Position numbers and translations under genes: made by a program | Part shown: positions 9,791-46,412 of the stretch, one piece after another | Layout of the letters: each line of letters opens with the position of its first letter | How positions within the stretch are numbered: position 1 is the stretch's first letter | From: Halobacteria archaeon AArc-dxtr1 | Lineage (GTDB): Archaea; Halobacteriota; Halobacteria; Halobacteriales; Natrialbaceae | Assembly: GCA_025517425.1 (NCBI GenBank) | Contig: JAOPJY010000001.1 | Location: 496,001 to 560,000 of the forward strand | Length of the DNA: 64,000 bases | Reading direction: 5' to 3' | Notes under the pieces: model-generated | The model's input: only the letters and a program-made list of their open reading frames with translations | Database searches by the model: none | What the model was told of the DNA's origin: nothing

Positions 9791-9901
9791 GGCCCGATCC
9801 AGGCAGTATCCGGGTAACGGCCCACGATGGGCAGTGAGTACTGTGCAGGAGTATACCACACGTTTCAACGAGACGACTGGGCGAGGCCAGAGAGGGATAG
9901 C

Positions 9902-10480
9902 ATGACCGCGACCTACCGCGGCGAGGAGTGTACGATCGACGAGACGGCTATCGTCGGTTACGGCGAGTTCGACGAGCCGACGCGGATCGGTGACGGTGCG
10001 ACGATCCGGGCCGGGTCGATCGTCTACGGCGACGTGACGATCGGCGACGGGTTCGCCACCGGTCACGACGCGGTGATCAGAGAGGAGACGACGATCGGCG
10101 ACGACGTCCTCGTCGGCACCAAGACGGTGATCGACGGCCAGACGTCGATCGGTTCGCACGTGAGCCTTCAGACCGGCGTCTACGTGCCGACCGATACGAC
10201 GATCGGCGACAACGTCTTCGTCGGGCCTCGCGCCGTCCTGACGAACGACGCGTATCCGGTCCGCACGGACGCGGATCTGGTCGGTCCGACGATCGAGGAC
10301 GGCGCGTCGATCGGTGCCAACGCGACCCTGCTGCCGGGCGTGACGATCGGCGAAAACGCCTTCGTGGCGGCGGGCGCCGTGGTCACCGACGACGTCCCCC
10401 CGAACACGCTCGCGGTGGGATCGCCTGCCCAGACCGAAGTGCTCCCCGGACCCCTGGAGGGGCCGAACCAACTCGCATGA
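9902..10480 (+). CDS. Hexapeptide-repeat N-acetyltransferase (WbpD-like)
   Basis: Left-handed beta-helix acyltransferase of 192 residues, built of repeated [IV]GD/[IV]G hexapeptides (IGDGATIRAG, IGDGFATGH, IGDDVLVG, IGDNVFVGPRAVLTND, IGANATLLPGVTIGENAFVAAGAVVTDDVP). The tail VGSPAQ is typical of sugar N-acetyltransferases that use acetyl-CoA. Its place as first gene before an aminotransferase, a Gfo/Idh/MocA dehydrogenase and a UDP-sugar dehydrogenase fits WbpD, which acetylates the 3-amino group of UDP-GlcNAc(3NH2)A. It overlaps the next gene by 4 bases (ATGA). Confidence 0.85.
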   Translation: MTATYRGEECTIDETAIVGYGEFDEPTRIGDGATIRAGSIVYGDVTIGDGFATGHDAVIREETTIGDDVLVGTKTVIDGQTSIGSHVSLQTGVYVPTDTTIGDNVFVGPRAVLTNDAYPVRTDADLVGPTIEDGASIGANATLLPGVTIGENAFVAAGAVVTDDVPPNTLAVGSPAQTEVLPGPLEGPNQLA

Positions 10481-11586
10481 GCGACGTCCCGATTGCGGAT
10501 CCGGAGGTAGGAGAGGCTGCCGCCGACCGCGTTCACTCGGTGCTCGCGGACGGCCGTCTCGCCGACGGGCCGGAAGTCCGTGCCTTCGAGTCCGAGTTCG
10601 CCGCCTACTGCGACGCAGACCACGGCGTCGCCACGTCGAACGGAACCACCGCCTTGCAGACGGCCCTGGAAGCGCTTGGCGTCTCGCGGGGCGATGCCGT
10701 CATCACGTCGCCCTTTTCGTTCGTCGCGAGTGCGAACGCGATCCGCCACGCTGGCGCCATCCCCGTCTTCGCGGACATCGACCCGGAGACGTACACGATC
10801 GATCCCGAGGCTGTCGCCGAGATCGTCCGGCGTCGTGAGGACGTCGTCGGGCTTCTCCCGGTCCACCTCTACGGGCTGGCAGCCGACATGGACCGCCTCG
10901 GGGAGATCGCCGACGATCACGACCTCTTCGTCGTCGAGGACGCCTGCCAGGCCCACGGCGCGGCGATCGACGGCGAGCGCGTCGGAACGATCGGCGACGC
11001 CGCCTGCTTCTCGTTTTACCCGACCAAGAACATGACGACCGGCGAGGGCGGCATCATCACGACCGACGACGAGCGCCTCGCCGAGCGCGCAGCCGGCTAC
11101 GTCAATCACGGCCGGATCGAGACCGACGGCGGACGGTACGACCACGTCGAGCTGGGGCATAACCACCGGATGACGAGCCTCGCGGCGGCGATCGGCCGCA
11201 CCCAGTTAGAGCGACTCCCCGCGTTCAACGAGGCTCGACGCGAGAACGCCGCCGCCTACGACGAGGCCCTCGCCGAGCTCCCGGTCGAAACCCCGACGGT
11301 ACCCGACGGGTACCGACACGTCTACCACCAGTACACGATCCGGACCGGTGAGCGCGACGGCCTCCAGGAGGCCCTCGCAGAGCGCGGGATCGGCGCGAGC
11401 GTCTACTACGAGACGCCGATCCACCGCCAGCCGGCCTACGAGACCGTAAGCACCGCCGCGACGAGCTGTCCCGAAGCCGATCGCGCTGCCGAGACGGTTC
11501 TCTCGCTGCCGGTCCACCCGAACGTCAGCGACGACGACCGGGACGCCGTCGTTCGGGCGATTTCGGACTACTTCGATCCCTCATGA
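10477..11586 (+). CDS. DegT/DnrJ/EryC1 sugar aminotransferase (WbpE-like)
   Basis: PLP-dependent aminotransferase of 369 residues. VATSNGTTALQTAL binds cofactor phosphate, VEDACQAHGA holds the Asp and Gln that contact the PLP ring, and SFYPTKNMTTGEGG carries the Schiff-base Lys. NHRMTSLAAAIGRTQLERL is also typical. In WbpE the reaction is transfer of an amino group from glutamate to C3 of a UDP-3-keto-GlcNAcA. The flanking WbpD-like and WbpB-like genes support that specificity. Its stop overlaps the next start by 4 bases. Confidence 0.9.
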   Translation: MSDVPIADPEVGEAAADRVHSVLADGRLADGPEVRAFESEFAAYCDADHGVATSNGTTALQTALEALGVSRGDAVITSPFSFVASANAIRHAGAIPVFADIDPETYTIDPEAVAEIVRRREDVVGLLPVHLYGLAADMDRLGEIADDHDLFVVEDACQAHGAAIDGERVGTIGDAACFSFYPTKNMTTGEGGIITTDDERLAERAAGYVNHGRIETDGGRYDHVELGHNHRMTSLAAAIGRTQLERLPAFNEARRENAAAYDEALAELPVETPTVPDGYRHVYHQYTIRTGERDGLQEALAERGIGASVYYETPIHRQPAYETVSTAATSCPEADRAAETVLSLPVHPNVSDDDRDAVVRAISDYFDPS

Positions 11587-12572
11587 CAGACTACCGCCCA
11601 CCACGTAACGACTCGACCCCCCTCCGAATCGGCGTCATCGGCGTCGGCTCGATGGGAGAGAACCACGCCCGCGTCTACGCCGAGCTCCGCGACGTCGAGC
11701 TCGCGGGTGTCACCGACCAGAATCGCGACCTCGCTCGGGAGGTTGCCCACCGGTATGGTACCGAGGCACGCTCATTCGAGGAGCTGCTCTCGGCCTGTGA
11801 CGCCGTCACCGTCGCCGTCCCCACGCACGCCCACGAGGAGGTGGTCTCCGCCTGCCTCGATGCCGGCGTCCACGTTTTGGTCGAGAAACCGATCGCCGAC
11901 TCGGTCGAGGCGGCCCGTCGGCTCGCCGAGCGCGCCCAGCAGGCCGGACTCGTCCTCCAGGTCGGCCACATCGAGCGGTTCAACCCTGCAGTCGGCGCTC
12001 TGGGGGACCTGCTCGACGACCACGAGATCATCGCGGTCGATGCCAATCGCCTCGGACCACCCGTCGACCGGGAGGGGACCGACGGCGTCGTCGCCGATCT
12101 GATGGTCCACGACGTCGACATCGTCGGCTCGATCTTCGGCGGGCGTCCGGACGAGATCACGGCCTCGGCTGCCGAGGACGGCCAGTACGCCACCGCGACG
12201 ATGCGCTTCGACGACGTCGTGGCCTCGCTGACCGCGAGTCGGGTCACCCAGAAGAAGGTCCGCAAGCTCACGGTGACGACCACAGAGTGTCTCATCGAGG
12301 TCGACTACTTGGAGCAGTCGGTGTTGATTCACCGCGACTCCTACCCATCCTACGTCACCGACGACGGCACGAACCGGTACCGCCACGAGAGCGTGGTTGA
12401 ACGTCCCCGAATCGACAACGGAGAACCGCTGCGCCACGAGCTCGAGTCGTTCGTCGAGGCGGTCAAAACCGGCTCGGAGCCCGTGGTGACCGCAGAAGAC
12501 GGCATCCGCGCGCTCCAGACGATAACACGAATCGAGCGCCGGGTCGGCGCCGACGAGGTGGTCGTGCAATGA
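11583..12572 (+). CDS. Gfo/Idh/MocA dehydrogenase (WbpB-like)
   Basis: NAD-dependent sugar dehydrogenase of 329 residues. The N-terminal Rossmann domain has GVIGVGSMGENHARVYAEL, and VEKPIADSVEAARRL carries the EKP motif. LQVGHIERFNPAVGAL starts the substrate domain. In the WbpB reaction UDP-GlcNAcA is oxidised at C3 before amination. The gene overlaps both neighbours by 4 bases, so the operon is translationally coupled. Other family members act on different sugars; the assignment rests on context as much as on sequence. Confidence 0.85.
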   Translation: MTDYRPPRNDSTPLRIGVIGVGSMGENHARVYAELRDVELAGVTDQNRDLAREVAHRYGTEARSFEELLSACDAVTVAVPTHAHEEVVSACLDAGVHVLVEKPIADSVEAARRLAERAQQAGLVLQVGHIERFNPAVGALGDLLDDHEIIAVDANRLGPPVDREGTDGVVADLMVHDVDIVGSIFGGRPDEITASAAEDGQYATATMRFDDVVASLTASRVTQKKVRKLTVTTTECLIEVDYLEQSVLIHRDSYPSYVTDDGTNRYRHESVVERPRIDNGEPLRHELESFVEAVKTGSEPVVTAEDGIRALQTITRIERRVGADEVVVQ

Positions 12573-14035
12573 CGGACGCGATCGAGGTGGCTCCCTACGA
12601 TGCTGACGGCGATGACGACAGAATCAGCGAGGCGTTCGCCGCCGGAGAGATTCCGGTAGCGGTCTACGGACTCGGGAAGATGGGCCTTCCCCTTGCGGCC
12701 GTCTACGCCGAGACGGCGGGGAATGTGACCGGCGTCGACGTCGACCCCGACGTCGTCGGCACCGTCTCCCGCGGCGAGAGCCACGTCGACGGCGAACCCG
12801 GACTCGACGAGCTAGTTGCCGACCAGGTCGACGCCGGACGGCTGACGGCGACGACAGACGGCGCCGCGGCCGCCTCGCAGGCGCGAATCCACGTCATCAT
12901 CGTCCCGACGCTACTCGACGAGAACCAGCAGCCGGACCTCTCGACGATTGAAGCGGTCGTCGACGACATCGCGACCGGTCTCCAGCCCGGCGATCTCGTC
13001 ATCGCCGAGTCGACGCTCCCACCAGGAACCTGCCGGGACGTGATCCGCCCTCACCTCGCCGCCGAGAGCGGAATCTCTGCGGATGCGTTCGGCGTCGCGT
13101 TCTGCCCGGAGCGGACCTCCTCGGGGCGCGCGTTACAGGATATTCGGGGCGCCTACCCCAAGGTCGTCGGCGGCGTCGACGCCGAGAGCACCCGGGCCGC
13201 CGCGCTGGTGTACGACGAACTCTCAGCCAACGAGATACACGCCGTCTCCGACGCCACCACCGCAGAGGCGGTGAAGGTCTTCGAGGGGATCTACCGCGAC
13301 GTCAACATCGGGCTGGCAAACGAGCTCGCCCGCGTCTGCGAGTCCTTTGGTGTCTCCGCGCGCGAGGCGTTCGCGACCGCCAACGACCTCCCGATGTGCC
13401 AGCTCCACGATCCCGGTCCGGGCGTCGGGGGCCACTGCATCCCCTTCTACCCCCACTTCGTGCTCTCGCAGGCCGACGAGATGCCGATCACCCGCGCGGC
13501 TCGCGAGGTCAACGACGGGATGCCGGGCGTGACCGTCGACCACCTCGAAGCCGAACTCGCGGCCGTCGGTACGCCGCTGTCTACCGCACGCGTTGCCGTC
13601 CTCGGGATCACCTACCGCCCCGAAATCGAAGAGACCCGCGCCTCGCCGGGCGTCGACGTGGTCACCGAACTCCGCGAGCGCGGCGCGACCGTCTTCGGCG
13701 CCGATCCGATGGTCGATCCGGCCGAATTTGGAGCCGAACCGGTCCGGATCGACGATCTCACAGAGCACGAGTTGGACGCTGCCGTGCTGGTGACGCCCCA
13801 CGAGGCGTTCGCCGCGATCGACTGGCCGGCGCTCGACCCGATGGTCGTCGTCGACGGCCGCGACGCCCTCGAGTTAGGCGAGACGGACCACCGGGTGTTC
13901 ACGCTCGGCGGCTCGGAGTCCGGGAGCGGTCCGGCCGCCGAGACTGGACGCGCCGACGGTCGAACGCAGCCGGCCGAGCACACGCCGGACAGACGCGTGC
14001 TTACGGCCGATTCGGCCGACGGGGGTGAGGACTGA
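12569..14035 (+). CDS. UDP-sugar 6-dehydrogenase (WbpA/WecC-like)
   Basis: Nucleotide-sugar dehydrogenase that oxidises C6 to a carboxylate in two NAD-dependent steps. It has the NAD-binding VYGLGKMGLPLAAVYAE, ESTLPPGTC, the FCPERTSSG segment, the catalytic Cys in GVGGHCIPFYPHF, and a C-terminal GITYRPEIEETRASPG domain. Length 488 includes an acidic N-terminal extension (about 30 residues) and a disordered C-terminal tail of about 60, longer than bacterial relatives. With the three preceding genes it would form UDP-2,3-diacetamido-2,3-dideoxy-glucuronate from UDP-GlcNAc. The stop TGA shares its A with the next ATG. Confidence 0.9.
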   Translation: MTDAIEVAPYDADGDDDRISEAFAAGEIPVAVYGLGKMGLPLAAVYAETAGNVTGVDVDPDVVGTVSRGESHVDGEPGLDELVADQVDAGRLTATTDGAAAASQARIHVIIVPTLLDENQQPDLSTIEAVVDDIATGLQPGDLVIAESTLPPGTCRDVIRPHLAAESGISADAFGVAFCPERTSSGRALQDIRGAYPKVVGGVDAESTRAAALVYDELSANEIHAVSDATTAEAVKVFEGIYRDVNIGLANELARVCESFGVSAREAFATANDLPMCQLHDPGPGVGGHCIPFYPHFVLSQADEMPITRAAREVNDGMPGVTVDHLEAELAAVGTPLSTARVAVLGITYRPEIEETRASPGVDVVTELRERGATVFGADPMVDPAEFGAEPVRIDDLTEHELDAAVLVTPHEAFAAIDWPALDPMVVVDGRDALELGETDHRVFTLGGSESGSGPAAETGRADGRTQPAEHTPDRRVLTADSADGGED

Positions 14036-15198
14036 TGTACCGCGGTCGGAGCGTCGGCGTCGTCGTGACTGCCTACAACGAGGCGTCGTTCGTCGGCCGC
14101 GTCATCGAGACCGTCCCCGACTTCGTCGACCGCGTCTACGCCGTCGACGACGCTTCGCCCGACGACTCCTGGGACGTGATTCAGGACGTCGCCGAGCGAC
14201 TGAACGGGGGCTCGCGATCCCATCCAGAGCCGGCGATCACTGACGGCGGCGACGACCGGTTCGTCGTCCCGATCCGCCACGACGAGAACCGCGGCTACGG
14301 CGGGGCCGTCAAAACCGGTTACGAGCGCGCCGCAGCCGACGGGATCGACGTCGTCGCGGTGCTGAACGGCGACGGGCAGATGGACCCTGCCATCTTGGAT
14401 CGGATTATCGACCCGGTCGTCTCCGGCGAGGCCGACTACGCGAAGGGCAACCGGCTGCTCGATTCGGACGACCGTGGTGGGATGTCGACGTTCCGGTTCA
14501 TCGGCAACGCAATGCTCTCTGGGCTCTCGAAGTTCGCGGCCGGCTACTGGTCGATTAGCGACCCACAGAACGGGTACACGGCGATCTCCCGGGAGGCGAT
14601 CGAGAGCCTCGACCTTGACGCGATCACGGACAACTACGGCTTTCTCAATCACCTGCTTACCCACTTGAACGTCGAAGGGTTTCGAGTTGCTGACGTACCG
14701 ATGACGGCCGTCTACGGCGACGAGGAGAGCAGTATTCGGTACGTTCCGTTCATCAGATTCGTCTCGTTGCTGTTGCTTCGCAGCTTCCTCTTCCGGCTCC
14801 GACAGCGGTACGTCGTCCAGCAGTTCCACCCCACCGTGGTCTTCTACGGCGCCGGGAGTGCCGGCCTGCTGGCTAGCGTCGGCGGCGCGGTTGCGGCAGG
14901 AAAGCGCGCTATGGGCGACAGCGACGGCGACGGCGTCCTTGCCTCGCTCATCTCGGTGCTTACCCTGCTCGTGGGTGCGGTGGCACTTGGCGCTGCCATC
15001 GCGATGGACGCCGCCGAAAACGCCTCCCTCGAGACGACGGTCGAACGCGAGCGTGCGGCCGGCCCAGAGCCGACTGGCGACGCGGTCGACTCGCCGCGGA
15101 CGAGCGGTGCCGTCGGACCGACTGGCTCCGGCGGGACGGCAGCCGCCGACGGGGGAACCGAACGACCGGCCGCGGAGCGCTCGGAAGGTGCTGATTAA
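14035..15198 (+). CDS. Family 2 glycosyltransferase with membrane tail
   Basis: GT-A type transferase, related to dolichyl-phosphate sugar synthases. VVTAYNEASFVGRVIETVP begins the nucleotide-sugar fold, YAVDDASPDDSWD follows, and NGDGQMDP holds the DxD-like metal site; SDPQNGYTAISREAI is typical of DPM-like enzymes. About residues 270-325 contain two hydrophobic segments that would anchor it, followed by a disordered Gly/Ala/Glu-rich tail. It is coupled to the sugar dehydrogenase gene by stop-start overlap, so it probably transfers the sugar made by that operon to a lipid carrier (inference). Confidence 0.88.
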   Translation: MYRGRSVGVVVTAYNEASFVGRVIETVPDFVDRVYAVDDASPDDSWDVIQDVAERLNGGSRSHPEPAITDGGDDRFVVPIRHDENRGYGGAVKTGYERAAADGIDVVAVLNGDGQMDPAILDRIIDPVVSGEADYAKGNRLLDSDDRGGMSTFRFIGNAMLSGLSKFAAGYWSISDPQNGYTAISREAIESLDLDAITDNYGFLNHLLTHLNVEGFRVADVPMTAVYGDEESSIRYVPFIRFVSLLLLRSFLFRLRQRYVVQQFHPTVVFYGAGSAGLLASVGGAVAAGKRAMGDSDGDGVLASLISVLTLLVGAVALGAAIAMDAAENASLETTVERERAAGPEPTGDAVDSPRTSGAVGPTGSGGTAAADGGTERPAAERSEGAD

Positions 15199-15229
15199 CC
15201 AAGCCCCGCGACGGCACCTACTCTCCTGA

Positions 15230-16147
15230 ATGCGTGTACTCACCCTGACCAACAGCGTCGACGCGCCGTTTCTGACCCAGCAGCTGTCGGCGCTCGAGCG
15301 CCGTGGCGTCTCCTTTACCGTCGAGGCCGTCGACGGCACGGTGACGTCGACGACCTCGCGGGGCCCGGTCGACTACCTGCGATATCTGCCGTCGGTGCTC
15401 CGAGAGTCCCTCGGGGAGTACGATCTGGTCCACGCCCACTACGGCCTCCTGGGACCCGTTGCGCTGGCTCAACTGCGCCGACCGGTCGTCCTCTCGTTGT
15501 GGGGATCGGATCTCTACGGTCCCGTCGAGCCGATCAGCCGGCTCTCGGCGCCGCTCTGCGACGAGGTGGTTGTCATGTCTGAGCAGATGCGGACGGATCT
15601 GGGACGGGAGTGCACCGTCATCCCCGACGGCGTCAACCTCTCCCAGTTCGAACCCGAGCCTCAGGACGAAGCGCGAGAGACCGTGGGATGGGACGCAGAG
15701 GCGGCAAACGTCCTCTTTCCCTACCCGCCGGATCGGGAAGTCAAAAACTATCCGCGCGCCGAGCGGGTCGTCCACGCAGTCGATGACTTGGTCGACCAGC
15801 CAGTCCGCTTGCAGACGATCTCCGGCGTCGACCACGACGACGTCTCGACCTACATGAGCGCGGCCGACGCGCTGATTCTAACCTCTCACAGCGAGGGGTC
15901 GCCGAACTCCGTCAAGGAAGCGATGGCCTGCAACCTCCCCGTGGTTGCCGCCGACGTCGGCGACGTGCGCGAGCGTCTCGACGGCGTGGATCCCTCCGCC
16001 GTCGGTAGTACGGACGCCGAACTGATTGACGGACTGCGGGAAGTCTTAGAGCGCGGCGAGCGCTCGAATGGTCGGGAAGCCGCCCGCGAGGTGAGCGTCG
16101 AGCACACTGCCGAGGCGATGCTCGACGTCTACGAGCGCGTGGCGTGA
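15230..16147 (+). CDS. Family 4 glycosyltransferase
   Basis: GT-B fold transferase of 305 residues. N-terminal domain with HAHYGLLGPVAL and LSLWGSDLYG, and C-terminal domain with the donor-binding HSEGSPNSVKEAMACNLPVV, which includes the conserved Glu-x7-Glu pair, then AADVGDVRERL. It begins 31 bases after the GT2 gene and is probably the last gene of the sugar-nucleotide operon. It is slightly short for the family (usually 350-400), but both domains are recognisable. Confidence 0.85.
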   Translation: MRVLTLTNSVDAPFLTQQLSALERRGVSFTVEAVDGTVTSTTSRGPVDYLRYLPSVLRESLGEYDLVHAHYGLLGPVALAQLRRPVVLSLWGSDLYGPVEPISRLSAPLCDEVVVMSEQMRTDLGRECTVIPDGVNLSQFEPEPQDEARETVGWDAEAANVLFPYPPDREVKNYPRAERVVHAVDDLVDQPVRLQTISGVDHDDVSTYMSAADALILTSHSEGSPNSVKEAMACNLPVVAADVGDVRERLDGVDPSAVGSTDAELIDGLREVLERGERSNGREAAREVSVEHTAEAMLDVYERVA

Positions 16148-22428: not shown

Positions 22429-22483
22429 ACCGGTTCCCGCCGACTCTCCGGCGACGAACGAGAATGCGTCTTCCTACAAACAC

Positions 22484-26169: not shown

Positions 26170-27495
26170 CTACCCTCGAACCCGTCCCGCACCTGCCTTC
26201 GCACCGCGCCAGACCGGATACAGCGCGTTGTAAACAGCCGTCGGCGTGTGTCTCGCACCCGCGCGCAAGAGGCGGTGGTGCAGCGGGGAGCCGGACTCAG
26301 AGACCAGTTCGTCCAGGTCGACCTGATCGAGCCAGGCGAAGAACGCGGCTTCATCCGGGCCGTCGGGCTCCGTCTCTCGGATACGGTTGCGAATGTCTTC
26401 CCACATATACCGCTCGTCGTCGCCGAGTTCCCATGCGCTCCGTTCGAACGCGCTCCGGATGTGTTCGTAGTCGTCCGTCTCGAAGGGGTAGCCGTGACGG
26501 TTCGGGTCGAGCCCCGCGAGCCGGAGACCGACGGCCGTCCGGTAGCACTTCTCGCAGGTGCCGCAGTTGCCGTCCAGGCGCGCGTTGCAGGTCTGTAACT
26601 CGAGTTCGTCGCCGGTCTCCTCGACGTAGTCGGCGATCAGGTCGATGCGCTCCTGGCGGGTCAGGTCGTAGCAGTCGTGGTGACACCGGGTGCCGGCCCA
26701 GCGAACCGACTCGTCGATGTCCGGGCGCGAGCCCCACTCTAAGTCGATTCCCTCCCAGTGGGTCGCCGCCACGTAGAGGTCGTCCATTCCACGGGCGTAG
26801 GCCATCGGCGCACAGAGTCCCAGCAGGCCGAGCCCGTGGCCGACGGAGCTGTACCAGGCGCCGTCGACGTAGCGCTTGTAGTGGGCGAGCAACATGGGGT
26901 GGGCCAGAAACGAGAGCATGTTCGACTCGACGAACGCGGTGTCGAGATCGTGTTTGTCCGCGAACCGCTCGGCACGTCCGCGCAGTTGATCCCACTTCTC
27001 GTCGTCGGCCGCATCGGGAGAGACGGTCCAGCCGCGGATGCTGATGAGCGTCGGCGCTTCCTCGCGCCGGCGGACGTACGAGGAGGTCGAGTCGACGCCG
27101 CCGGTAAAGAGCAGGCCGCTCTCACCGGATTCGACCGACGCGTCGCCGCCGTCGGACAACGGCTCCGGATCAATCGTCTCGCGCGCGTAGAGGGTTCCGC
27201 CCTCGAGGAAGTCGTGCATCGAACAGAGCACTTCGTTGACGTCTTCGAGTGCCGCTGCGAACGTCGCGTCGACCTCCTCGACGTAGACGTCGGCGCCGCA
27301 GGCCCAGGCGACCGGACAGACGTGTGCGAGCACCGGGATGACGAGGACGCCGTCGGGAACGTCCTCGATCGAGACGTCGTAGTTGACGCGAAATGGCTCG
27401 TCGGTGATGAACCGCTCGAGATCGCCCGACGCTTGGACCGTACACTCGAGGGTAGACGCTTCGGCCGTGATTTCGTCGACGATGAGTCGTGACAT
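26170..27495 (-). CDS. PP-loop ATP-pyrophosphatase-like protein
   Basis: Protein of 441 residues. LLFTGGVDSTSSY (TGGVDS at 131-136) is the PP-loop that binds ATP in enzymes such as QueC, asparagine synthetase and NAD synthetase. An N-terminal domain of about 120 residues precedes it. After the core come CHHDC and LDGNCGTCEKCYRTAVGL, a Cys cluster likely to bind zinc, as in QueC-type enzymes. It is much longer than QueC (about 220-230), so it is not that enzyme. Such ATPases adenylate a substrate before amide or thio transfer. The neighbours make surface glycans, so a glycan or lipid amidation role is possible; this is inferred. The ATG at 27495 was chosen over an in-frame TTG at 27555. Confidence 0.7.
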   Translation of the reverse strand: MSRLIVDEITAEASTLECTVQASGDLERFITDEPFRVNYDVSIEDVPDGVLVIPVLAHVCPVAWACGADVYVEEVDATFAAALEDVNEVLCSMHDFLEGGTLYARETIDPEPLSDGGDASVESGESGLLFTGGVDSTSSYVRRREEAPTLISIRGWTVSPDAADDEKWDQLRGRAERFADKHDLDTAFVESNMLSFLAHPMLLAHYKRYVDGAWYSSVGHGLGLLGLCAPMAYARGMDDLYVAATHWEGIDLEWGSRPDIDESVRWAGTRCHHDCYDLTRQERIDLIADYVEETGDELELQTCNARLDGNCGTCEKCYRTAVGLRLAGLDPNRHGYPFETDDYEHIRSAFERSAWELGDDERYMWEDIRNRIRETEPDGPDEAAFFAWLDQVDLDELVSESGSPLHHRLLRAGARHTPTAVYNALYPVWRGAKAGAGRVRG

Positions 27496-27723
27496 GCGAA
27501 AGGTAGCGGGCCGGTCGGCCCACGGGGTGTGCGCCAGCACCACGAGTCCGTACAAAAATGGTTCGAACCGTTGACTCTCTGCGCAAACCGAACACGACGC
27601 GTAGCATCCCTCTGCAGTCCGACAGGCGGATGCTACCTGATACGAGTCCGTTCGATAGACCAGTTTGGCCGCGTTTCGTCACCGTCGCTTCGAGGGGACA
27701 GTGGTGGACTGTCTGCTCGTTCT

Positions 27724-27910: not shown

Positions 27911-27987
27911 CCGGGTATCGGAGGACTCACCCTCAAGATGGGTATCGAGACTGGAGGATGCATCGACGTCGTCACCGGCGGGGTTCG

Positions 27988-29778
27988 ATGAAACGCGTCG
28001 CTCGTAACCTAGTGTTGGCGGCTGGCTATCTCGCCGTCGCCATGGCAATTCTCGTCGCCAGGGCGAATCCGGCCTCGAACTACGAGATTTCGATGTACGC
28101 GTCGACGCCGACGTTGACGTGGCTCGGAATCGGACTGGCGTTTGCGATCGCCGTCAGCGCCGCATTGCTCTGCCGCGGGCGGGTGCAGGCGGCCGCAATC
28201 GGGCTCGGTGGACTCGCAGTTACGACGATCGTGAGCATGTCGCTCATCAGAAATTACCGGTTCGCCGGGCTGGGTGACGCACTCACTCACCTGGGATGGA
28301 CCCGAGACCTGCTCGATGGTTCGATGGTTCCCCAGGACCTCTTCTACCCCGGCCTTCACACGGCGGCGAGCGTCGTTCACCTCCTCTCTGGGATTCCGGT
28401 CGAGCGGGCGATCCTGTTGCTGGTGGTGGTTCTGTTCGTCCCGTTCTTGCTGTTCGTCCCGCTTACGGTTCGAGACCTTTCGGGAAGCGGGTTGGCGGTC
28501 GGGATCGCAGCGATCGTCTCCTGGTTTCTCCTACCGATCAACAACGTCGGCACACATATGGGGGCACACACGAACTCGAACGCCCTCTTTCTGGTTCCCG
28601 TCGTGCTCTTCGCGGTCGTCGCCTACCTGCACCGCGGCGCCGGGGACGACCGGCTTCCGTTTGGTCTCTCGCCGTTTACTGCCCTGATCCTCGTCAGCGG
28701 GCTGGCGCTGTTGCTCGTCCACCCACAGCAGATGATCAGTCTGGTCGTTCTGCTCGGCGCCATCGCGGCCGTTCAGTACCTGGCGAGCTGGCGCTTTACA
28801 GAGCACCCGATTCTCGAACACCCGACGATGTACGCGCACACGCTCGTCCTCGGTGCTGCCGTCGGGGTCTGGTCGCTTTCCAACGAGCGATTCCGGGGCG
28901 CGATCGAGGGGCTGCTCACCGGTCTGGTCACGGAGGACGTCGGCGGGGGCGCGACCGTCGAGCAGCGTGGCACCTCCCTCACTGAGATCGGCGGGAGCTT
29001 AGGCGAGTTGTTCGTGTTGATGTTCTTGGAGGCCGCGATCATCGGGGCGATCGTCGCGCTGTTTATTCTCGCCGTCTGGCTCGGATTCGCCCGGCCGGAT
29101 CGGCAGCTTCGAGCGTTCACTACCTACTTCGGAATCGCGCTGTTCCCACTCGGGGTGATGTTCGTCGTCTACTTCGCCGGGACGCCGACGATGGCGTTCA
29201 GACAGGTGGGGTTCATCTACGTCCTGCTGACGATCCTCGCAGGGGTCGCGATCGCCCACGCTGCCGGCGGACTGTCGAGGCTGACGACGCCCTCGATTTC
29301 TTCCGCGTTGGTCGCGACGCTGCTTGCGGCGTGTCTCGTCCTCGGCGCGATCACCATCTATGCGTCGCCCATCATCTATCAGCCCAGCCAGCACGTCTCC
29401 GACCAGCAGATGGATGGCTACCAGGCCGGATACGCCTACTCCGACGAGGAGCGCCCACACCTCGGCCTTGGGTTCGATCCCTACCGGTTCGACCACGGCA
29501 TCAACGGCGTCGAAGAAGAGAGTCTGACGACCACCCCGTTCGCCACCGGGACAGTCGATCCAGAGACCTTCGAGGAGGGTAACTACAGCGGCAGCTACGA
29601 GGGCCACAGCTACTACCTCTTCCTCTCCGAGTTCGATACGAGCCGGGAGCTAGACGTCTACCAGGAACTGCACTTCTCGTCTGAGTCGGTCGAGAACGTC
29701 GAGCGAGACCCAGCTGTGAACAAAGCGGTCTCGAACGACGAGTTCCGAATGTACGCGGTGACGGGAAGTGACGTCTGA
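27988..29778 (+). CDS. Large polytopic membrane protein, GT-C-like
   Basis: About 596 residues with roughly ten to twelve predicted membrane helices over the first 470 residues, then an extracellular tail of about 125 (YQAGYAYSDEERPHLGLGFDPYRF). The first large loop contains GDALTHLGWTRDLLDG followed by FYPGLHT, which resembles the acidic loop and substrate site of GT-C transferases and O-antigen-type membrane glycosyltransferases; this likeness is by eye only. Start at ATG 27988 (MKRVARN); an ATG at 27958 would add ten Arg/His-rich residues. It could move or transfer lipid-linked sugars. An ATAACAAA copy lies upstream. Confidence 0.72.
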   Translation: MKRVARNLVLAAGYLAVAMAILVARANPASNYEISMYASTPTLTWLGIGLAFAIAVSAALLCRGRVQAAAIGLGGLAVTTIVSMSLIRNYRFAGLGDALTHLGWTRDLLDGSMVPQDLFYPGLHTAASVVHLLSGIPVERAILLLVVVLFVPFLLFVPLTVRDLSGSGLAVGIAAIVSWFLLPINNVGTHMGAHTNSNALFLVPVVLFAVVAYLHRGAGDDRLPFGLSPFTALILVSGLALLLVHPQQMISLVVLLGAIAAVQYLASWRFTEHPILEHPTMYAHTLVLGAAVGVWSLSNERFRGAIEGLLTGLVTEDVGGGATVEQRGTSLTEIGGSLGELFVLMFLEAAIIGAIVALFILAVWLGFARPDRQLRAFTTYFGIALFPLGVMFVVYFAGTPTMAFRQVGFIYVLLTILAGVAIAHAAGGLSRLTTPSISSALVATLLAACLVLGAITIYASPIIYQPSQHVSDQQMDGYQAGYAYSDEERPHLGLGFDPYRFDHGINGVEEESLTTTPFATGTVDPETFEEGNYSGSYEGHSYYLFLSEFDTSRELDVYQELHFSSESVENVERDPAVNKAVSNDEFRMYAVTGSDV

Positions 29779-30131: not shown

Positions 30132-31073
30132 ATGGCGCAGAACCCCCGTCCTACCGAGGAGGATGCTCCTACCGAAATCGCACGTAATACCGGATTACCC
30201 CGCCGCTCGTACCTCCGCTCGCTCGCGGCGGTCGCGACGGCGACGCTCTCACTGGGCGCAGCCGGCTCGGCCGCGGCCGACGACGACTACGAGGTCATCG
30301 AGGCCGACGGTCAGAACATCGTGATCGACGACGGCGAGACCTGGGAGCACAAGCTCATCGATATGACGAGCGGCGGCGACATCACCGTCACCGCCGAAGG
30401 AACCGACTGGACGATCCGAAACGTCGGTTTCTACGGCGAGAACACCTCCGGGACGGGCTCTGCGACCCTGGCCGTCGCGGACACTGGTGGCGCGACCAGT
30501 ACGATCGAGAACGTCTATCTCGGCGACGGCTCTGACGACCGAAACGGAAGCAGTACCGGGCACGGTCAGACCGCAATCTGGGTCAATCCCGACCATTCGG
30601 GGCACCTGGACATCTCGAACGTAAACATCCAGAACTTCGCGGACAACGCGATCTACGGTTCGGCCCCCGGCGGTTCCGGCGGCGGCACGGTTCACATCGA
30701 CAGCTCCTTCGCCGCGAACTGCTACGTCTCGCACTTCCGCGTCGCGACTGAGGGGAGCGCGATCACGAACTCGAGCGTCTACGTCGACGACGAGGGCTAC
30801 GCCGGACGTGGGATCTGGGCCTGGGCGCCCGGCACGATCGAGGTAGACGGCTGCCAGATCGAGATGAACGGAAACCACACCGCGATCGACGCGGGTGCAA
30901 ACGGCCAGGGAACGACGGTGCAGGTGACAGATACGGACTACGACGAACAGGGTGGGATTACTGAGGAGGGCGGCTCGACGGTCGAACTCGCCGACGATGT
31001 CGGCACCGACCCCGAAGCTATCCGCCCCGATGGTGTGCCCACGTCCGCAGAGGACGCAGCGGCCGGAAACTGA
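30132..31073 (+). CDS. Secreted right-handed beta-helix protein (first copy)
   Basis: Protein of 313 residues with a Tat signal (RRSYLRSLAAVATATL, then a hydrophobic core ending AGSAAA at about residue 50). The mature part has short repeated strands of the pectate-lyase-like beta-helix kind: WTIRNVGFYG, TIENVYLGDG, LDISNVNIQNFADNAIYG, ITNSSVYVDD, IEVDGCQIEMNGNHTAI. It closely resembles the N-terminal half of the protein at 31520 (both contain ENVY[LM]GDG, GHGQ or SHGQ, and NCYVSHFR or NNYVSTYR). It may bind or cleave polysaccharide outside the cell; no catalytic set can be assigned by eye. Confidence 0.8.
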   Translation: MAQNPRPTEEDAPTEIARNTGLPRRSYLRSLAAVATATLSLGAAGSAAADDDYEVIEADGQNIVIDDGETWEHKLIDMTSGGDITVTAEGTDWTIRNVGFYGENTSGTGSATLAVADTGGATSTIENVYLGDGSDDRNGSSTGHGQTAIWVNPDHSGHLDISNVNIQNFADNAIYGSAPGGSGGGTVHIDSSFAANCYVSHFRVATEGSAITNSSVYVDDEGYAGRGIWAWAPGTIEVDGCQIEMNGNHTAIDAGANGQGTTVQVTDTDYDEQGGITEEGGSTVELADDVGTDPEAIRPDGVPTSAEDAAAGN

Positions 31074-31519: not shown

Positions 31520-33625
31520 ATGGCACGCGAACCTTCGGTACTGAACAACGACGAATCGGGCGACATCGGCCACGAGAGAGCCAATACGAGCGGTAATGGT
31601 GGATTACTCCACCGGCGATCGTATCTGAAACTCGCGGGAACCGCGACGGCCGCCGCCGCGGTCGCGAGTGCGGCCGGCTCCGCGGACGAAGACGAGTACG
31701 AGGTCTGGGAGGCAGACAACTCCCGGTACTTCATGGACGAAGGCGAGACGTTAGAGAACGTCATCATCGACTTCTCGAACGGTAACTGGTTCCAGATCCA
31801 GGCGACTGGCGTCTCGAATTTCACGATCCGGAACGTCGCGTTCGTCGGTACGCACCGCCACGACGAGCACGCGATCATCTTCTCGTGTTCGGACGAGGGA
31901 CTCATCGAGAACGTCTACATGGGCGACGGCTGCGTTCGGCCAAGCTCGTACTCCTCGCACGGACAGTGTGGGATCTTCGGCCACAACTCCCACTCCGGAC
32001 ACGTGACGATTCGCAACGTCAACGTCCAGGGCTGGCCCAACAACGGGATGTACACCTCGTCGGTCGCACGCTCGGGCGGCACCGTCTCCATCGAAGAGTG
32101 TTACGGCGCGAACAACTACGTCTCGACGTATCGGATCGCCGACGGCAGTGAGGTCCGCGACTCCGTCGCGTACAACGACGGAGGGCGGTACTCCGGGCGC
32201 TGTCTCTGGGCATACGATCCCGGCACCTCGACCTGTGACGGTTGTAACTTCGACTCCGGGCCGTACAACACCGCGGTCATCGTCCGCGGAAACGCCACGC
32301 TCAACCTCTCGAACACGACCTACGACAGCGCGAGCGGCAACATCAACGGCAACGGCGGGAACAACGCGAACGGCGGCGCCGATCTGACGCCGCCCGAGGG
32401 CGTCCCGATGACCGCCGAGGAAGCCGTCAGCGCCGAGGGCGGCAGCGGCGGTATCACGTCCCCTCGATCGTTCGAAGACGGAGAGGGAGGCGAACCCGAA
32501 GACGATTGGGATCACGTCTACACGATCTACGCCGACGAGGACGTCGACTACTACTTCGAAGCCCAGGGCGACGTCGAATTCCGAACCGGCGGCGGCAACG
32601 GCGTCATCTGGGACGAGGGGCCGTCGAACACGCTCGCGGGAACCATTCCCGCCGGCGAGTTCCACGCAATTCACCACAACGAACTGGTCGCAGACGTCGA
32701 CCTCTTCGGCGAGGCTCACGCCTTTACCGACACGTACAGCTCGGATCTCTCGATTTACCCGCGCGACTTCGCGTCCGATGGGACGTGGAAAGCCGACGTC
32801 GACATCCACGACCACTACGGCGACGAATCCGACCTGGAGAACGTCATCCTCTTCGACGGCGAGGAGTCGGGCGCCACCCGATACGAGTTCGTCGTCGACG
32901 GCGACGTCGAGAAGTCGACCTACGAGGGCGCCTCGATCGACGACGAGGACGTCATCGAGGACGACCTGGTCCACGGTGTCGTCGCCGACTGGCGCGATGC
33001 GTTCCGATTCAGCGGCGATCTCGAGCAGCTGACCGTCGACGGCCCGGGGACGGTAACGGTAAACGGCGAGGAAGTCGATCCATCGGAATACGGCGAAGAT
33101 CTCCCACACGTCCTCACGATCGAGGGGCGTGGCGTCCCAACCAGCTACGAAATCACCGTCGACGGCAGCATCGAGCTCGTCGACGTGGAGAACCCTGAAG
33201 ACGACGCGACGACGGTCTCGGGATCGACCGCCCAGAGCTCGATCACCGACGGCACCCAGGAGTTCCACTTCTCTGGTGCAGTTACCGACGTGACTTTCAG
33301 CGACGGCAAAGCCGCCGTCTTCGTCGACGACGAGGAGGTAGATACCTCAGAGTACGGCGACCACAAGCTGTTGCCCCACGCGATCGTCGTCGACGGCACC
33401 GAGGCCGAGGGCGCCAGCGCGTACTCCTTTAGCACCAGCGGCAAGGTGATCAAGTCCGATCACCTCGATGCGTCGATCGACGACGAGGACATCATCGACG
33501 GGCGAGCCGTCCGCGGTGTCGTCTCCGGCTGGCTCGACGCCTACTGGTTCGACGGCGACGTCGAGGACCTGCTCGTCCTGGGCGACGCATCCGCACACGT
33601 CCTGTACAACGCTCGAGATCAGTAA
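31520..33625 (+). CDS. Secreted beta-helix protein with repeated C-terminal modules (second copy)
   Basis: Protein of 701 residues. A twin-arginine-like signal (RRSYLKLAGTATAAAAVAS) leads to a beta-helix domain (about 60-290) paralogous to the gene before it. After a Gly-rich linker come about four copies of a roughly 90-residue module (about 325-700). Repeated features are YEF.VDG, SIDDEDVI or SIDDEDII, HGVVADW or RGVVSGW, DAF.FSGD or DAYWFDGD, and V[DN]..EVD[PT]SEYG. The last copy ends at the C-terminus. The modules probably bind carbohydrate or the surface. The leader and start context (GCATGGC) match the first copy, which suggests tandem duplication with added modules. Confidence 0.8.
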   Translation: MAREPSVLNNDESGDIGHERANTSGNGGLLHRRSYLKLAGTATAAAAVASAAGSADEDEYEVWEADNSRYFMDEGETLENVIIDFSNGNWFQIQATGVSNFTIRNVAFVGTHRHDEHAIIFSCSDEGLIENVYMGDGCVRPSSYSSHGQCGIFGHNSHSGHVTIRNVNVQGWPNNGMYTSSVARSGGTVSIEECYGANNYVSTYRIADGSEVRDSVAYNDGGRYSGRCLWAYDPGTSTCDGCNFDSGPYNTAVIVRGNATLNLSNTTYDSASGNINGNGGNNANGGADLTPPEGVPMTAEEAVSAEGGSGGITSPRSFEDGEGGEPEDDWDHVYTIYADEDVDYYFEAQGDVEFRTGGGNGVIWDEGPSNTLAGTIPAGEFHAIHHNELVADVDLFGEAHAFTDTYSSDLSIYPRDFASDGTWKADVDIHDHYGDESDLENVILFDGEESGATRYEFVVDGDVEKSTYEGASIDDEDVIEDDLVHGVVADWRDAFRFSGDLEQLTVDGPGTVTVNGEEVDPSEYGEDLPHVLTIEGRGVPTSYEITVDGSIELVDVENPEDDATTVSGSTAQSSITDGTQEFHFSGAVTDVTFSDGKAAVFVDDEEVDTSEYGDHKLLPHAIVVDGTEAEGASAYSFSTSGKVIKSDHLDASIDDEDIIDGRAVRGVVSGWLDAYWFDGDVEDLLVLGDASAHVLYNARDQ

Positions 33626-33710: not shown

Positions 33711-35690
33711 TCACTCGAACAGCGCCGCGTTTCGCTGATTGTAGAGGAACTCGGCGACGTGTGCTCTGTTAGCCATTCGTCCCGAGTAGGTACTGGTCGC
33801 GTCACAGCGCCAGTCTAGACGCAGTCGGTGGAGGTAGACCGCAGGAAGGGAGACGGCGACCGTTCGCAACGGGATGTCGACCGCATCGCAGTAGTGTTCG
33901 AGACAGTCCCGTGCTCGGTCGGCGTGTTCGGTTTCCGCGTGGAGTACCTGCCGAACCCCCGCGTAGAAATCGTCACCGGCTCGCGCGGCCGTATCGAGTA
34001 AGAGAAAGCCTGCGTCGACGACCGGCGACGCCGAGAGCGCGCCGTACTCCCAGTCGATCACGCTTGTCACGGAGTCTCCCTCGACGTAGATATTCTGCGC
34101 GAGAAAGTCGCCGTGGACGGGGGTCTCGAACGTCTCGACCGGCTCGGAGATAGTCGGCGGTTCGAGTCCGGCGGGTGCAAACCGCAGCGATTCCTCGACC
34201 TGTTCGGGAGATCGGGTGATCCGTTCGCCACCGCACGCGTGCTGGAACTCGATGAGCCAGTCGAACCCGATCCGTAACACGCGTTCGAACGCGTCCGGAT
34301 CGCCCCCCATTTGGCCGCCAAGCGATCGCCCAGAGACCGGCTCTTCCCGTCTGCAGGCGCCGAACGACGAGGTGATTTCGACGCCACTGGGGAGTGTGTC
34401 CGCGAACGGCTCGTCCCTCGAGCGCAACTCCTCTAGCACCGCGTTCTCCCGTCGGGAGAGGGGCTCGTGGGCCCGTCGGTTTGGGACTTTCCAGACGGCC
34501 GTCGGACCGTCGTCACCGAGTTCGAGGACCACAGATCGCGACCGGCCACTGATCAACATCGGCCGGGTAAACGTCGGCGACGGCTCTCGTCCCACCGAGT
34601 GGGTCGAAGACGCCGGACTGCGTTGCTCGCGCCCGTCCAGCGCGGCGACATCGTGGGAGTGGGGGTCTTCTCTCCTGTCGTCACCATCCCGCTCGTAGAC
34701 GACCAGATAGCTCGGCAGGCTCCGTTTCAGGAGCCCGCACCGATCCGCCAGCGAGAGGAGCAAGCGACCGGCCGATCCGGTCTGTGACCGGTCGTCGAAC
34801 ACGAACTCCGAAAGTGTCCGGACGGCGTCGGCGTTGTCGACCGCAAACGCGTACAGCGGTCGGGACGCCGACGGAACGAGCGCGTACGTGGTCGTACGCT
34901 CGAAGTCGAATCGCTCGCCGAGCGTCTCGAACCCACTTGGTGTCGTCGGCCGGAGTCCAGTCACCGAGGGCGACGGAGACGTTCCGCCGTCGATCCCAGC
35001 GAGTCGCGGCAGTCCCAGCGTGCGGGGCCAGCCGTCGACCGTCGTCAGGATGGTCCCCCCCTCGGCCAGGTACGGTTCCAGCGCCGAGAGCAAGCCACGA
35101 AGTCCGCGGTCCGTGGCCGTCGCGTCCGCGACGATAGTATCGAACGCGCCGCCGGAGAAGGGGAGTTCGTCGACGGTCGTGTGTACGGGCACGACGTCGC
35201 CTGCGCTCTCGAAGTCGTCACGGGCGGCAGTCACGCGCAGCTTCGAGAGGTTGGGATCGACGGCGTAGACCGTGTCCGCGAGTTCGGCAAGCAGCATCGA
35301 TCGCCGCCCGAACCCGGCAGAGACGTCGAGACAGCGGCCGGTTACCTGCTCGGTGACGAGCATCCGCCAGGCATCACGGCCGGCATCGAACAGCGCCGAC
35401 CGCACGCTTTGTGTGTCAGATCGCCCGTCGTGCCACTCCTCGGCCGCCGCTCGTATGCCGTGTTGTTCGGTGAGCAGCGCGAGCTCTTCGAGTCCGTCCG
35501 TACGGGCGTCTTTCTCCGCCGAGACCGGGACGAACGAGACGATCTCGTCGTGTTGTTGGCCGGACCGCCCGCACCGGGGGCAGCTCAGCGACTGGGGCGT
35601 AAGCGCCACGGAGCAACTCGGACAGGCAAGCAACTCGACGCCGTCTGACAGCGATTCCTGGTAGTCGCGTTTCAGTGTTTGAATGGACAT
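33711..35690 (-). CDS. Zinc-ribbon/SAM-methyltransferase/APH-like kinase fusion
   Basis: Protein of 659 residues that joins three parts. First a zinc ribbon with Cys23, Cys26, Cys37 and Cys40 (CPSC, CPRC). Second a class I SAM-dependent methyltransferase, with motif I LDVSAGFGRR at 121-130, YAVDPN as the acidic end of strand 2 and FDTIVADA as motif IV. Third, from about 370, an aminoglycoside-phosphotransferase/choline-kinase-like domain with the catalytic loop HGDFLAQNI (His526-Asp528) and IDWEYG (Asp546) as metal-binding Asp. It may both phosphorylate and methylate a small glycan or lipid; methyltransferase and kinase can cap polysaccharide chains in O-antigen systems. That comparison is inference. 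Confidence 0.8.
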   Translation of the reverse strand: MSIQTLKRDYQESLSDGVELLACPSCSVALTPQSLSCPRCGRSGQQHDEIVSFVPVSAEKDARTDGLEELALLTEQHGIRAAAEEWHDGRSDTQSVRSALFDAGRDAWRMLVTEQVTGRCLDVSAGFGRRSMLLAELADTVYAVDPNLSKLRVTAARDDFESAGDVVPVHTTVDELPFSGGAFDTIVADATATDRGLRGLLSALEPYLAEGGTILTTVDGWPRTLGLPRLAGIDGGTSPSPSVTGLRPTTPSGFETLGERFDFERTTTYALVPSASRPLYAFAVDNADAVRTLSEFVFDDRSQTGSAGRLLLSLADRCGLLKRSLPSYLVVYERDGDDRREDPHSHDVAALDGREQRSPASSTHSVGREPSPTFTRPMLISGRSRSVVLELGDDGPTAVWKVPNRRAHEPLSRRENAVLEELRSRDEPFADTLPSGVEITSSFGACRREEPVSGRSLGGQMGGDPDAFERVLRIGFDWLIEFQHACGGERITRSPEQVEESLRFAPAGLEPPTISEPVETFETPVHGDFLAQNIYVEGDSVTSVIDWEYGALSASPVVDAGFLLLDTAARAGDDFYAGVRQVLHAETEHADRARDCLEHYCDAVDIPLRTVAVSLPAVYLHRLRLDWRCDATSTYSGRMANRAHVAEFLYNQRNAALFE

Positions 35691-36122
35691 CGTGTAGACT
35701 ACAGCGGCCGGGAAACTGCCGCTCAGTTCGGCTCACCAGCGTACAGCCGGCGAACGTGACGGTCCTAACAGCTAACGTATCCACTCCCGTGGTCCGTTTC
35801 TCGGCGTATCGTTATTATACGCCTACCAGTCCAGGAATCGTGTGGCGGGCAGGCGACGATCGGCGCACGACTCGCCCGATCGGCTCAGAGACGCGTCGCT
35901 CCGAACTGTCAGAGTGGCTCCCGTCGCTGGAACAATTGCTGGCACGCGAACTGCTCCGGTACTGATGACGAGTCGGGAGCCGGTCGACAGTACGTGACCG
36001 GTCCGTAAAAGTGCTTCTCGAGTGCACGTGCTGGGGACTCTCGGACACTGATGCTCGGATCGGCAGAGAGATCTCTGTCGGCAGGCTATGTCAGGGGAAT
36101 GAACGTCACCTCGACGCGTCGA
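35691..36122. other. Intergenic region with shared AT-rich element
   Basis: No strong gene. GTTATTATAC at 35811-35820 could act as promoter leftward or rightward. A possible small frame follows at 35840. Confidence 0.4.
35840..35965 (+). CDS. Possible 41-residue leaderless small ORF
   Basis: GTG at 35840 lies about 25 nt after a TATA-like GTTATTATAC. The product is charged and ends with a helix-like SEWLPSLEQLLARELLRY. It could be chance; no family was recognised. Confidence 0.25.
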   Translation: MWRAGDDRRTTRPIGSETRRSELSEWLPSLEQLLARELLRY

Positions 36123-36719
36123 TTACTCGATCCGGGACAGCAGTCCGTCGATGGACTGCTGTGCGCGGTGATTGAACAGGACATGAGCGAGCGAGAGAGC
36201 ACAGAACGCGACCACGATTGACGCCGCAATCGCGACTGTTGGGGCGATCGAGAACGGCGGGATGCCGAGGAATGCACCGCTTAGAAGGCCGAGACCGATG
36301 ACGCTGAGCCCGACGTAGAATCGGTCCCACCGATCCTGTCGCTGGTTGTCGGTATCGAGATACATCATCAGCAGGTCGGCGTTATCTGAGAGTTCGATCA
36401 ACCCTCGGTCCTGATCGTACTCGACGATCCCTGCGTCGTCCATCTTGGGTAAGTGCGTCTGGTACAGGGCGACGTAGACGCGCTTTCGTTGATCCGAACT
36501 CAACGCGTTGACCTCGGTATCGTTCTCCCAGGCGGCGATCTGTTCGGCCAGCTCGCCGAGGGTTACCGTTCCCTCTGCCTCGAGCAAGTAGACGAGCACT
36601 TCCCGACGGCGCCGATTCTTCAGGAGCTCGAAAATGACGTCCTTCGAGAGCCGTTTTTCGCGATCGGAGTCGGTAACAGTCGCGATCTCCTCGGGGAGAG
36701 ACGCGTCTGCTGAGGCCAT
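36123..36719 (-). CDS. DUF7344-type winged-helix protein with membrane tail
   Basis: Protein of 198 residues. The winged helix starts VIFELLKNRRRREVLVYLLE, with the signature KRVYVALYQTHLPKMDDAGIVEYD. Two membrane helices lie near 130-150 and 155-178. It is the third and longest member of this group here, nearest in sequence to the one at 8967-9500 (both have AWEND and VY[VI][AS]LYQTHLP). Isolated, between the fusion protein gene and TFB. Confidence 0.75.
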   Translation of the reverse strand: MASADASLPEEIATVTDSDREKRLSKDVIFELLKNRRRREVLVYLLEAEGTVTLGELAEQIAAWENDTEVNALSSDQRKRVYVALYQTHLPKMDDAGIVEYDQDRGLIELSDNADLLMMYLDTDNQRQDRWDRFYVGLSVIGLGLLSGAFLGIPPFSIAPTVAIAASIVVAFCALSLAHVLFNHRAQQSIDGLLSRIE

Positions 36720-37444
36720 TATTGGCCGCCTCCACTGGAAGATCGACGAGGGCAGTTGTTCGACCCGACGTTACTCGCATCGATCGGCAACCCGTCCTGG
36801 ATCGATGACCGGGAGATCGCAGTCACAGTTGACTCACCAGTTTGTAGGCCAACGGTGATTCTCTTAAATACGGCCACGTTTCGCAACCGCTGCAACGGGC
36901 GTACGGAGCCGCTTCCACACGGCAGTTCGTCGCCACGGCTGACGGTCGGTCGAGCCGACGTGTGGGGCGATTCGAACATCGACATGCAGGCCGTCCGGCA
37001 GTTTTCTGACCGCCTGCCCGAGATGGGAATAACGGAATAATCTGTGGGGAAGAGGGGCTGAAGCGCCGGAAGTGGTGAGTTCTGCAACACGGCAATCTGC
37101 CGGACGTTCGATGGCGCGAGTATAAACCACCCCGACGGTTCGGCGTCGAAAGGTGTGTTTATGCGTGGAAGACTGGATTTACTCCAGCCAAATCGTAACA
37201 TTCAGCAACCATTTTCTCACCACGAACTGTGTGGGCTGAGCGGTGACAACCGTGGTCGATTGACTGTGGCGAGCCAGCGTTGTGAGGAGACTACTACTGA
37301 AACGCGCTTCCGGTGAAAACGGTTCGCTCACCGCCCCAGTATCGCCCCGAGAACGTGGCTTGTGGGATCTGTCTCAGTAAGTCGCGGTTTCCGCCGAAAC
37401 CATGTGACCCCCTTACAGTGGCGGGATGGCTCTCTCACATACCG
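36720..37444. other. Long intergenic region before the TFB gene
   Basis: 725 bases with no convincing gene. Frames with weak starts at 36756 (94 codons, TTG) and 37161 (52 codons) have no recognisable features. TATA-like GAGTATAAACC at about 37118-37128 reads in both directions. A start upstream of 37445 in the TFB frame is open but has no TFB features. Confidence 0.5.
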
Positions 37445-46387: not shown

Positions 46388-46412
46388 GCCTCGAACGGGC
46401 ATGTCACCGCCC

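What the first reader, a model, noticed from the sequence alone, without database searches (positions are those of the whole stretch)
33711..35690. Fusion of zinc ribbon, methyltransferase and APH-like kinase in one protein
HGDFLAQNI and IDWEYG of the kinase and LDVSAGFGRR of the methyltransferase lie in one 659-residue chain with a CPSC/CPRC ribbon. Methyltransferase-kinase pairs cap glycan chains in some bacterial O-antigen systems; a fused archaeal version next to beta-helix proteins would be a new arrangement.
Basis: partly seen in the sequence, partly recalled or inferred. Interest (0 to 1): 0.68.

Follow-up and report, generated by a model that had tools for sequence, protein, structure and literature searches.

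The report
Archaeal fused methyltransferase-kinase for surface glycans
A salt-loving archaeon carries one protein that joins a methyl-adding enzyme to a sugar-kinase-like enzyme; relatives are made together with a sugar-chain flippase, which suggests it puts a phosphate and methyl mark on surface sugar chains before they leave the cell.

Summary
In detail: window 33711-35690, MINUS strand, is one intact 659-residue ORF with a CPSC/CPRC ribbon (C23, C26, C37, C40), a class I SAM methyltransferase (MTase) and an APH-fold kinase. It is not a joining error. The same order recurs in 26 other haloarchaeal genomes (25-47% identity). The kinase residues (K401, HGDxxxxN, DWE, D559) are invariant in 30/30 aligned copies. 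MTase motif I is degenerate in 8/30, and the ribbon is absent in about half. In two genomes of another family the ribbon-MTase and the kinase are separate genes overlapping by ATGA, beside a beta-helix protein and a polysaccharide lyase. The strongest functional clue was not in the finding: a Wzx-like flippase gene lies within 2 kb in 19/31 loci (0.3 expected), usually upstream with start/stop codons overlapping or touching. The window's own locus has lost that flippase. Best reading: a glycan-modifying enzyme that phosphorylates a lipid-linked glycan and, in MTase-intact copies, methylates it before flipping. This works like the Klebsiella O7 ORF6 and E. coli WbdD terminators. It is not shown to belong to either: no coiled-coil ruler, no ABC-transporter context, no detectable WbdD match. 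New variant of a known kind; substrate and product unproven.

The parts
33711..35690 (-). Fused ribbon-MTase-kinase gene, 659 aa, ATG at 35690, stop at 33713-33711
   Evidence: full-length homologs; AlphaFold2 pTM 0.87
35568..35627 (-). Putative zinc ribbon, residues 22-41, C23-x2-C26...C37-x2-C40
   Evidence: sequence; weak Pfam DZR/Zn_ribbon_3 hits; cysteine pattern in about half of 30 homologs
34677..35354 (-). Class I SAM methyltransferase plus family-specific C-terminal part, residues 113-338; motif I LDVSAGFGRR intact
   Evidence: Pfam; PDB profile hits 3dlc, 2avn, 1xxl; C-terminal part conserved in split relative
33714..34589 (-). APH-fold kinase, residues 368-659; K401, H526-G-D528, N533, D546-W-E548, D559 invariant in 30/30
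31520..33625 (+). Tat-signal beta-helix-type secreted protein, convergent with the kinase gene; family linked in 15 of 31 genome loci
   Evidence: RR motif in sequence; linkage; relatives annotated 'right-handed parallel beta-helix'
30132..31073 (+). Second member of the same secreted beta-helix family
36123..36719 (-). DUF7344 (winged-helix-like) regulator gene directly upstream; relatives have the flippase between it and the fused gene
   Evidence: PF24035 E 1e-34; gene order in L021, L043, L052
37313..38410 (+). TFB (transcription initiation factor IIB) gene, conserved cluster neighbour
27958..29778 (+). Large probable membrane protein of the family PGAP calls DUF6541 in Halomontanus; conserved cluster neighbour
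   Evidence: no Pfam hit of its own
26170..27555 (-). Conserved hypothetical protein (461 aa), cluster neighbour in L043, L052, L060, L079
22388..24076 (+). Alkaline-phosphatase-superfamily phosphodiesterase (PF01663); an alkaline phosphatase family protein is also near in Halomontanus
9827..16147 (+). Nucleotide-sugar and glycosyltransferase genes: NeuD-like acetyltransferase, PseC/LegC-like aminotransferase, Gfo-type oxidoreductase, NDP-sugar dehydrogenase, AglJ-like GT2, GT4

Best explanation
The protein is a cytoplasmic, bifunctional enzyme that decorates a surface glycan while it is still on its lipid carrier. The APH-fold kinase phosphorylates a sugar hydroxyl of the lipid-linked glycan with ATP. 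The MTase then transfers a methyl group from SAM, most simply onto that phosphate (a methylphosphate cap, as in bacterial O7 and O9a) or onto a sugar nearby. The product is handed to a Wzx-like flippase for export and acts in a layer that also receives Tat-exported beta-helix proteins. Shown: the fusion, its conservation, the invariant kinase site, the operonic coupling to flippases in relatives, and the split pair. Inferred: substrate, order of reactions, methylphosphate product, and that the flippase-less copy in this genome still serves a glycan exported by another flippase.
For: Kinase catalytic residues invariant in 30/30, with APH fold. MTase motif I intact in the window and in most of its clade. 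Wzx-like flippase within 2 kb in 19 of 31 loci against 0.3 expected. Flippase stop and enzyme start overlap as ATGA in L051, L054, L056, L058, L060 and L062 and lie 3-6 bases apart in L021, L052 and L079. Of 104 proteins within 2.5 kb of the homologs, 18 are flippases, about 10 GT4 glycosyltransferases and 3 initiating sugar transferases PF02397. Split pair: ribbon-MTase and kinase as two ATGA-overlapping genes beside PF13229 beta-helix, PF21294 polysaccharide lyase and a FemAB-like GNAT. The window lies in a surface-glycan island. Precedent: K. pneumoniae O7 ORF6 joins an MTase to an AmiN-like (APH-type) kinase and makes the methylphosphate end in vitro (PMC11231755); AmiN 6sum is among the window kinase's fold matches (rank 42).
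Against: No chemistry was tested. MTase motif I is lost in 8 of 30, so methylation cannot be the universal job. No flippase next to the gene in this genome; nearest is about 149 kb away. No C-terminal coiled coil, so a chain-length ruler is unlikely. No archaeal methylphosphate glycan turned up in the literature searches.
Confidence: 0.52

Rival explanations
1. The two domains act on the same glycan but independently: the kinase makes a phosphosugar and the MTase methylates a different hydroxyl or a carboxylate. The fusion only keeps two tailoring enzymes together; there is no methylphosphate cap.
For: Kinase site invariant while MTase decays in two branches of the tree, so the kinase product is useful without methylation; glycan context as for the best explanation.
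Against: Fusion in some lineages and ATGA-coupled split genes in another suggest sequential steps; both characterised MTase-kinases act sequentially.
Confidence: 0.28
2. Mainly a kinase: the MTase part is a scaffold or SAM sensor, active only in some branches. The protein phosphorylates a glycan, nucleotide-sugar precursor or lipid carrier.
For: Kinase residues 30/30; motif I degenerate in L042, L045, L047 (two copies), L050, L051, L062, L070.
Against: Motif I and the acidic residue after strand 2 are intact in the window protein and most of its clade.
Confidence: 0.1
3. It modifies a lipid or small molecule, for example the methyl ester of phosphatidylglycerophosphate of haloarchaeal membranes, or an antibiotic.
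For: APH fold is typical of antibiotic kinases; haloarchaeal PGP-Me carries a methylated phosphate (background knowledge).
Against: The family is in only 27 of 391 genomes of the class whereas PGP-Me is general in haloarchaea (background knowledge); neighbours are glycan genes.
Confidence: 0.06

Closest known systems
K. pneumoniae O7 ORF6 N-terminal MTase-kinase terminator (PMC11231755)
   Same: N-terminal SAM MTase followed by an APH-type (AmiN-like) kinase in one chain; glycan context; weak sequence similarity of the kinase to known families.
   Different: ORF6 adds a CBM-like domain, a coiled-coil ruler and GT2 modules, and works with an ABC transporter; the archaeal family has an optional N-terminal ribbon, no coiled coil, and is coupled to a Wzx-like flippase.
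E. coli O9a / K. pneumoniae O3 WbdD (PMC3482155)
   Same: MTase (1-210) then kinase (211-459) in one chain; phosphorylates and methylates a glycan end.
   Different: WbdD's kinase resembles eukaryotic protein kinases and needs a C-terminal coiled coil; ABC-transporter pathway. WbdD was not among PDB sequence hits of our kinase or MTase profiles nor in the top 50 fold matches.
Aminoglycoside/macrolide phosphotransferases (PF01636; APH(2''), Mph, AmiN)
   Same: Kinase fold and catalytic HGDxxxxN / D-W-E motifs.
   Different: Stand-alone resistance enzymes; 10-17% identity in fold alignments; no fused MTase.
PGAP 'phosphotransferase' WP_276257008.1, Halomontanus rarus plasmid NZ_CP119800.1
   Same: Same family, 44.9% identity over 99%; same gene order flippase-enzyme-beta-helix as other relatives.
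   Different: Annotated only as phosphotransferase; keeps the flippase that the window has lost.

Membership tests
WbdD / ORF6-type MTase-kinase chain terminators | MTase followed by kinase in one polypeptide | tested here: met
WbdD / ORF6-type MTase-kinase chain terminators | C-terminal coiled-coil molecular ruler | tested here: not met
   chain ends with the kinase C-lobe helix 637-658 in the model; homologs have only short tails
WbdD / ORF6-type MTase-kinase chain terminators | Encoded with an ABC transporter (Wzm/Wzt) for the glycan | tested here: not met
   neighbours are Wzx-like flippases; no ABC family among the 25 commonest neighbour families (rarer ones not shown)
WbdD / ORF6-type MTase-kinase chain terminators | Phosphorylates and methylates the non-reducing glycan end | not testable with these tools
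   needs biochemistry
WbdD proper | Sequence or fold match of the kinase to WbdD | tested here: not met
   absent from profile hits and top 50 fold matches, which are APH enzymes and relatives
APH phosphotransferase superfamily (PF01636) | APH fold with HGDxxxxN and DxD/DWE catalytic motifs | tested here: met
   26/30 homologs match PF01636; window above cut-off; fold; residues 30/30
Class I SAM methyltransferases | Rossmann fold with glycine-rich motif I and acidic residue after strand 2 | tested here: met
   window: LDVSAGFGRR and AVDP; Pfam; fold hits; not met in 8 of 30 homologs
Zinc ribbon | Two CxxC knuckles binding one zinc | tested here: inconclusive
   four cysteines present; profile hits below cut-off; absent in about half of the homologs

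The most novel reading that the evidence does not exclude
Archaea have their own MTase-kinase glycan capping enzymes that make a methylphosphate (or phosphate alone, where the MTase has decayed) on lipid-linked glycans and hand them to a Wzx-type flippase: an end-capping strategy known so far for ABC-transporter glycans, here evolved in flippase-dependent export without a coiled-coil ruler.
Probability: 0.3. Interest if true: 0.7.

Novelty: new variant of a known kind. Interest (0 to 1): 0.52.

Why it matters
Phosphorylated or methylphosphate-capped surface glycans would be a new chemistry for haloarchaea as far as the held literature shows. The frequent operonic coupling to a flippase gives a concrete, testable prediction about which glycan is modified. 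The family also shows the MTase decaying while the kinase is kept, which separates the two activities genetically. In annotation it is hidden as 'phosphotransferase', a label that suggests drug resistance.

Tried and rejected
Sequencing or assembly error joining two genes: rejected, same fusion in 26 other genomes. Phage origin: no match in phage records. RNA elements: none in the window. Flippase remnant in the 433-bp gap upstream of the gene: only chance-level hits. Membership of WbdD: no sequence or top-50 fold match. PGP-Me lipid methylation: the sporadic distribution argues against it. Neighbour family 6 from the first ORF call was an antisense artefact of the flippase, recognised. A patterned scan of named genomes gave only one close relative. 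Literature searches for archaeal methylphosphate or phosphorylated glycans gave nothing relevant.

Full report
Check of the observation. The reading frame is real and lies on the minus strand: ATG at 35690, stop at 33711, 659 residues. Pfam finds the MTase (residues 121-212) and weak ribbon hits. The kinase is recognised through the family: 26 of 30 homologs match PF01636, and the window copy itself passes the APH cut-off in the genome search. The AlphaFold2 model built from 30 homologs has pLDDT 86.9 and pTM 0.87. Its MTase part matches class I SAM enzymes. The kinase alone (pLDDT 93.8, pTM 0.91) matches APH(2''), macrolide kinases and amicoumacin kinase, with TM-scores of about 0.4-0.6 at 10-17% identity.

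Not an error. Homologs with the same domain order occur in 27 of 391 sampled genomes of the class, the window's included, mostly in the window's own family and in two other families of the order. Several genomes hold two or three paralogs (G014, G230, G376). Pairwise identity to the window protein is 25-47%. One named relative is on a Halomontanus rarus plasmid, annotated only 'phosphotransferase'; another is in Natronolimnohabitans innermongolicus.

What is conserved. K401, H526-G527-D528, N533, D546-W547-E548 and D559 are invariant in all 30 aligned copies. MTase motif I is clearly degenerate in eight copies: L042, L045, L047 (two copies), L050, L051, L062 and L070; parsimony on the kinase tree gives two changes. 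The ribbon cysteines are present in about half, with seven changes on the tree. So the kinase is the fixed core, the MTase is usually but not always intact, and the ribbon is optional. The window copy has all three intact.

Split relatives. In G073 and G074, of another haloarchaeal family, the ribbon-MTase (347 aa) and the kinase (325 and 320 aa) are separate genes whose stop and start overlap as ATGA. For G073 the kinase aligns to the window's at 27% identity (E 9e-13) and the MTase at 29% (E 7e-12), including the family-specific stretch behind the MTase core. In G073 (L080) their neighbours are a PF13229 beta-helix protein, a polysaccharide lyase 14 protein and a FemAB-like acyltransferase. 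Fused in some lineages and translationally coupled in another, the two activities most likely work on one pathway.

Surroundings. A Wzx-like flippase (PF01943) lies within 2 kb of the gene in 19 of 31 loci, against 0.3 expected under uniform placement (uniform placement ignores that glycan genes cluster). In six loci the flippase stop overlaps the enzyme start as ATGA; in three more they lie 3-6 bases apart. Of 104 proteins within 2.5 kb of the homologs, 18 are flippases, about ten GT4 glycosyltransferases and three PF02397 initiating sugar transferases. Beta-helix proteins of one family occur within 10 kb in 15 of the 31 genome loci, and also on the Halomontanus plasmid. All 11 members of the window's own well-supported clade (98/96) have one.

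The window locus itself. Relatives L021, L043 and L052 have the order TFB, DUF7344 regulator, flippase, enzyme, beta-helix. The window has TFB, regulator, enzyme, beta-helix: the flippase is missing, with no remnant in the 433-bp gap, and the nearest flippase is about 149 kb away. Elsewhere in the window are nucleotide-sugar and glycosyltransferase genes (AglJ-like GT2, NDP-sugar dehydrogenase, PseC/LegC-like aminotransferase, NeuD-like acetyltransferase).

Mechanism. The best-supported reading is a cytoplasmic tailoring enzyme of a lipid-linked surface glycan, with phosphorylation by the APH-fold kinase and, in MTase-intact copies, methylation, followed by export through a Wzx-like flippase. 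Bacterial precedent exists: K. pneumoniae O7 ORF6 (MTase plus AmiN-like kinase, methylphosphate product shown in vitro, PMC11231755) and WbdD (PMC3482155). Fold, residues and linkage are shown here; the substrate, the order of reactions, the methylphosphate product and any chain-ending role are inferred. A chain-length ruler is unlikely because there is no coiled coil and the context is a flippase rather than an ABC transporter. It works like an MTase-kinase glycan modifier; it is not filed as a WbdD or ORF6 family member, because two defining features were tested and not met.

Novelty. A fused MTase-kinase is not new in bacteria. New here are the archaeal family, the optional ribbon, the coupling to flippases and the repeated decay of the MTase beside an invariant kinase. 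I rate it a new variant of a known kind.

Noticed in passing
window 35691-36122: The Wzx-like flippase found between regulator and enzyme in close relatives is absent here, with no remnant; this genome holds only three PF01943 genes, against 2-11 in the other 26 genomes searched.
   Followed up: partly
L042:9099-10919, L045:9048-10925, L047:3019-4755 and 15679-17565, L070:8931-11078: A subfamily with degenerate MTase motif I sits next to GT4 glycosyltransferases and has no flippase within 2 kb: MTase loss and flippase loss go together in this branch.
   Followed up: partly
L080:5280-7297 and L081:5598-7600: Split ribbon-MTase and kinase genes overlapping by ATGA; in L080 next to a polysaccharide lyase 14 protein and a beta-helix protein.
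   Followed up: yes
window 36123-38410; L021, L043, L052, L079: A TFB gene and a DUF7344 regulator are conserved partners of these glycan loci, which suggests a dedicated basal factor and regulator for a surface-glycan island.
   Followed up: no
window 22388-24076 and 46401-48029: Two PF01663 (alkaline phosphatase superfamily) phosphodiesterase-like proteins flank the region; the Halomontanus cluster also has an alkaline phosphatase family protein. They might act on phosphorylated glycans.
   Followed up: no
window 49123-49749: A small MazF/PemK-like protein next to an AbrB-like protein looks like a toxin-antitoxin pair (sequence resemblance only).
   Followed up: no
neighbour set A4 (loci within 2.5 kb of homologs): Two neighbours match Pfam Thymidylate_kin (PF02223), an unexpected second kinase type in such loci.
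   Followed up: no
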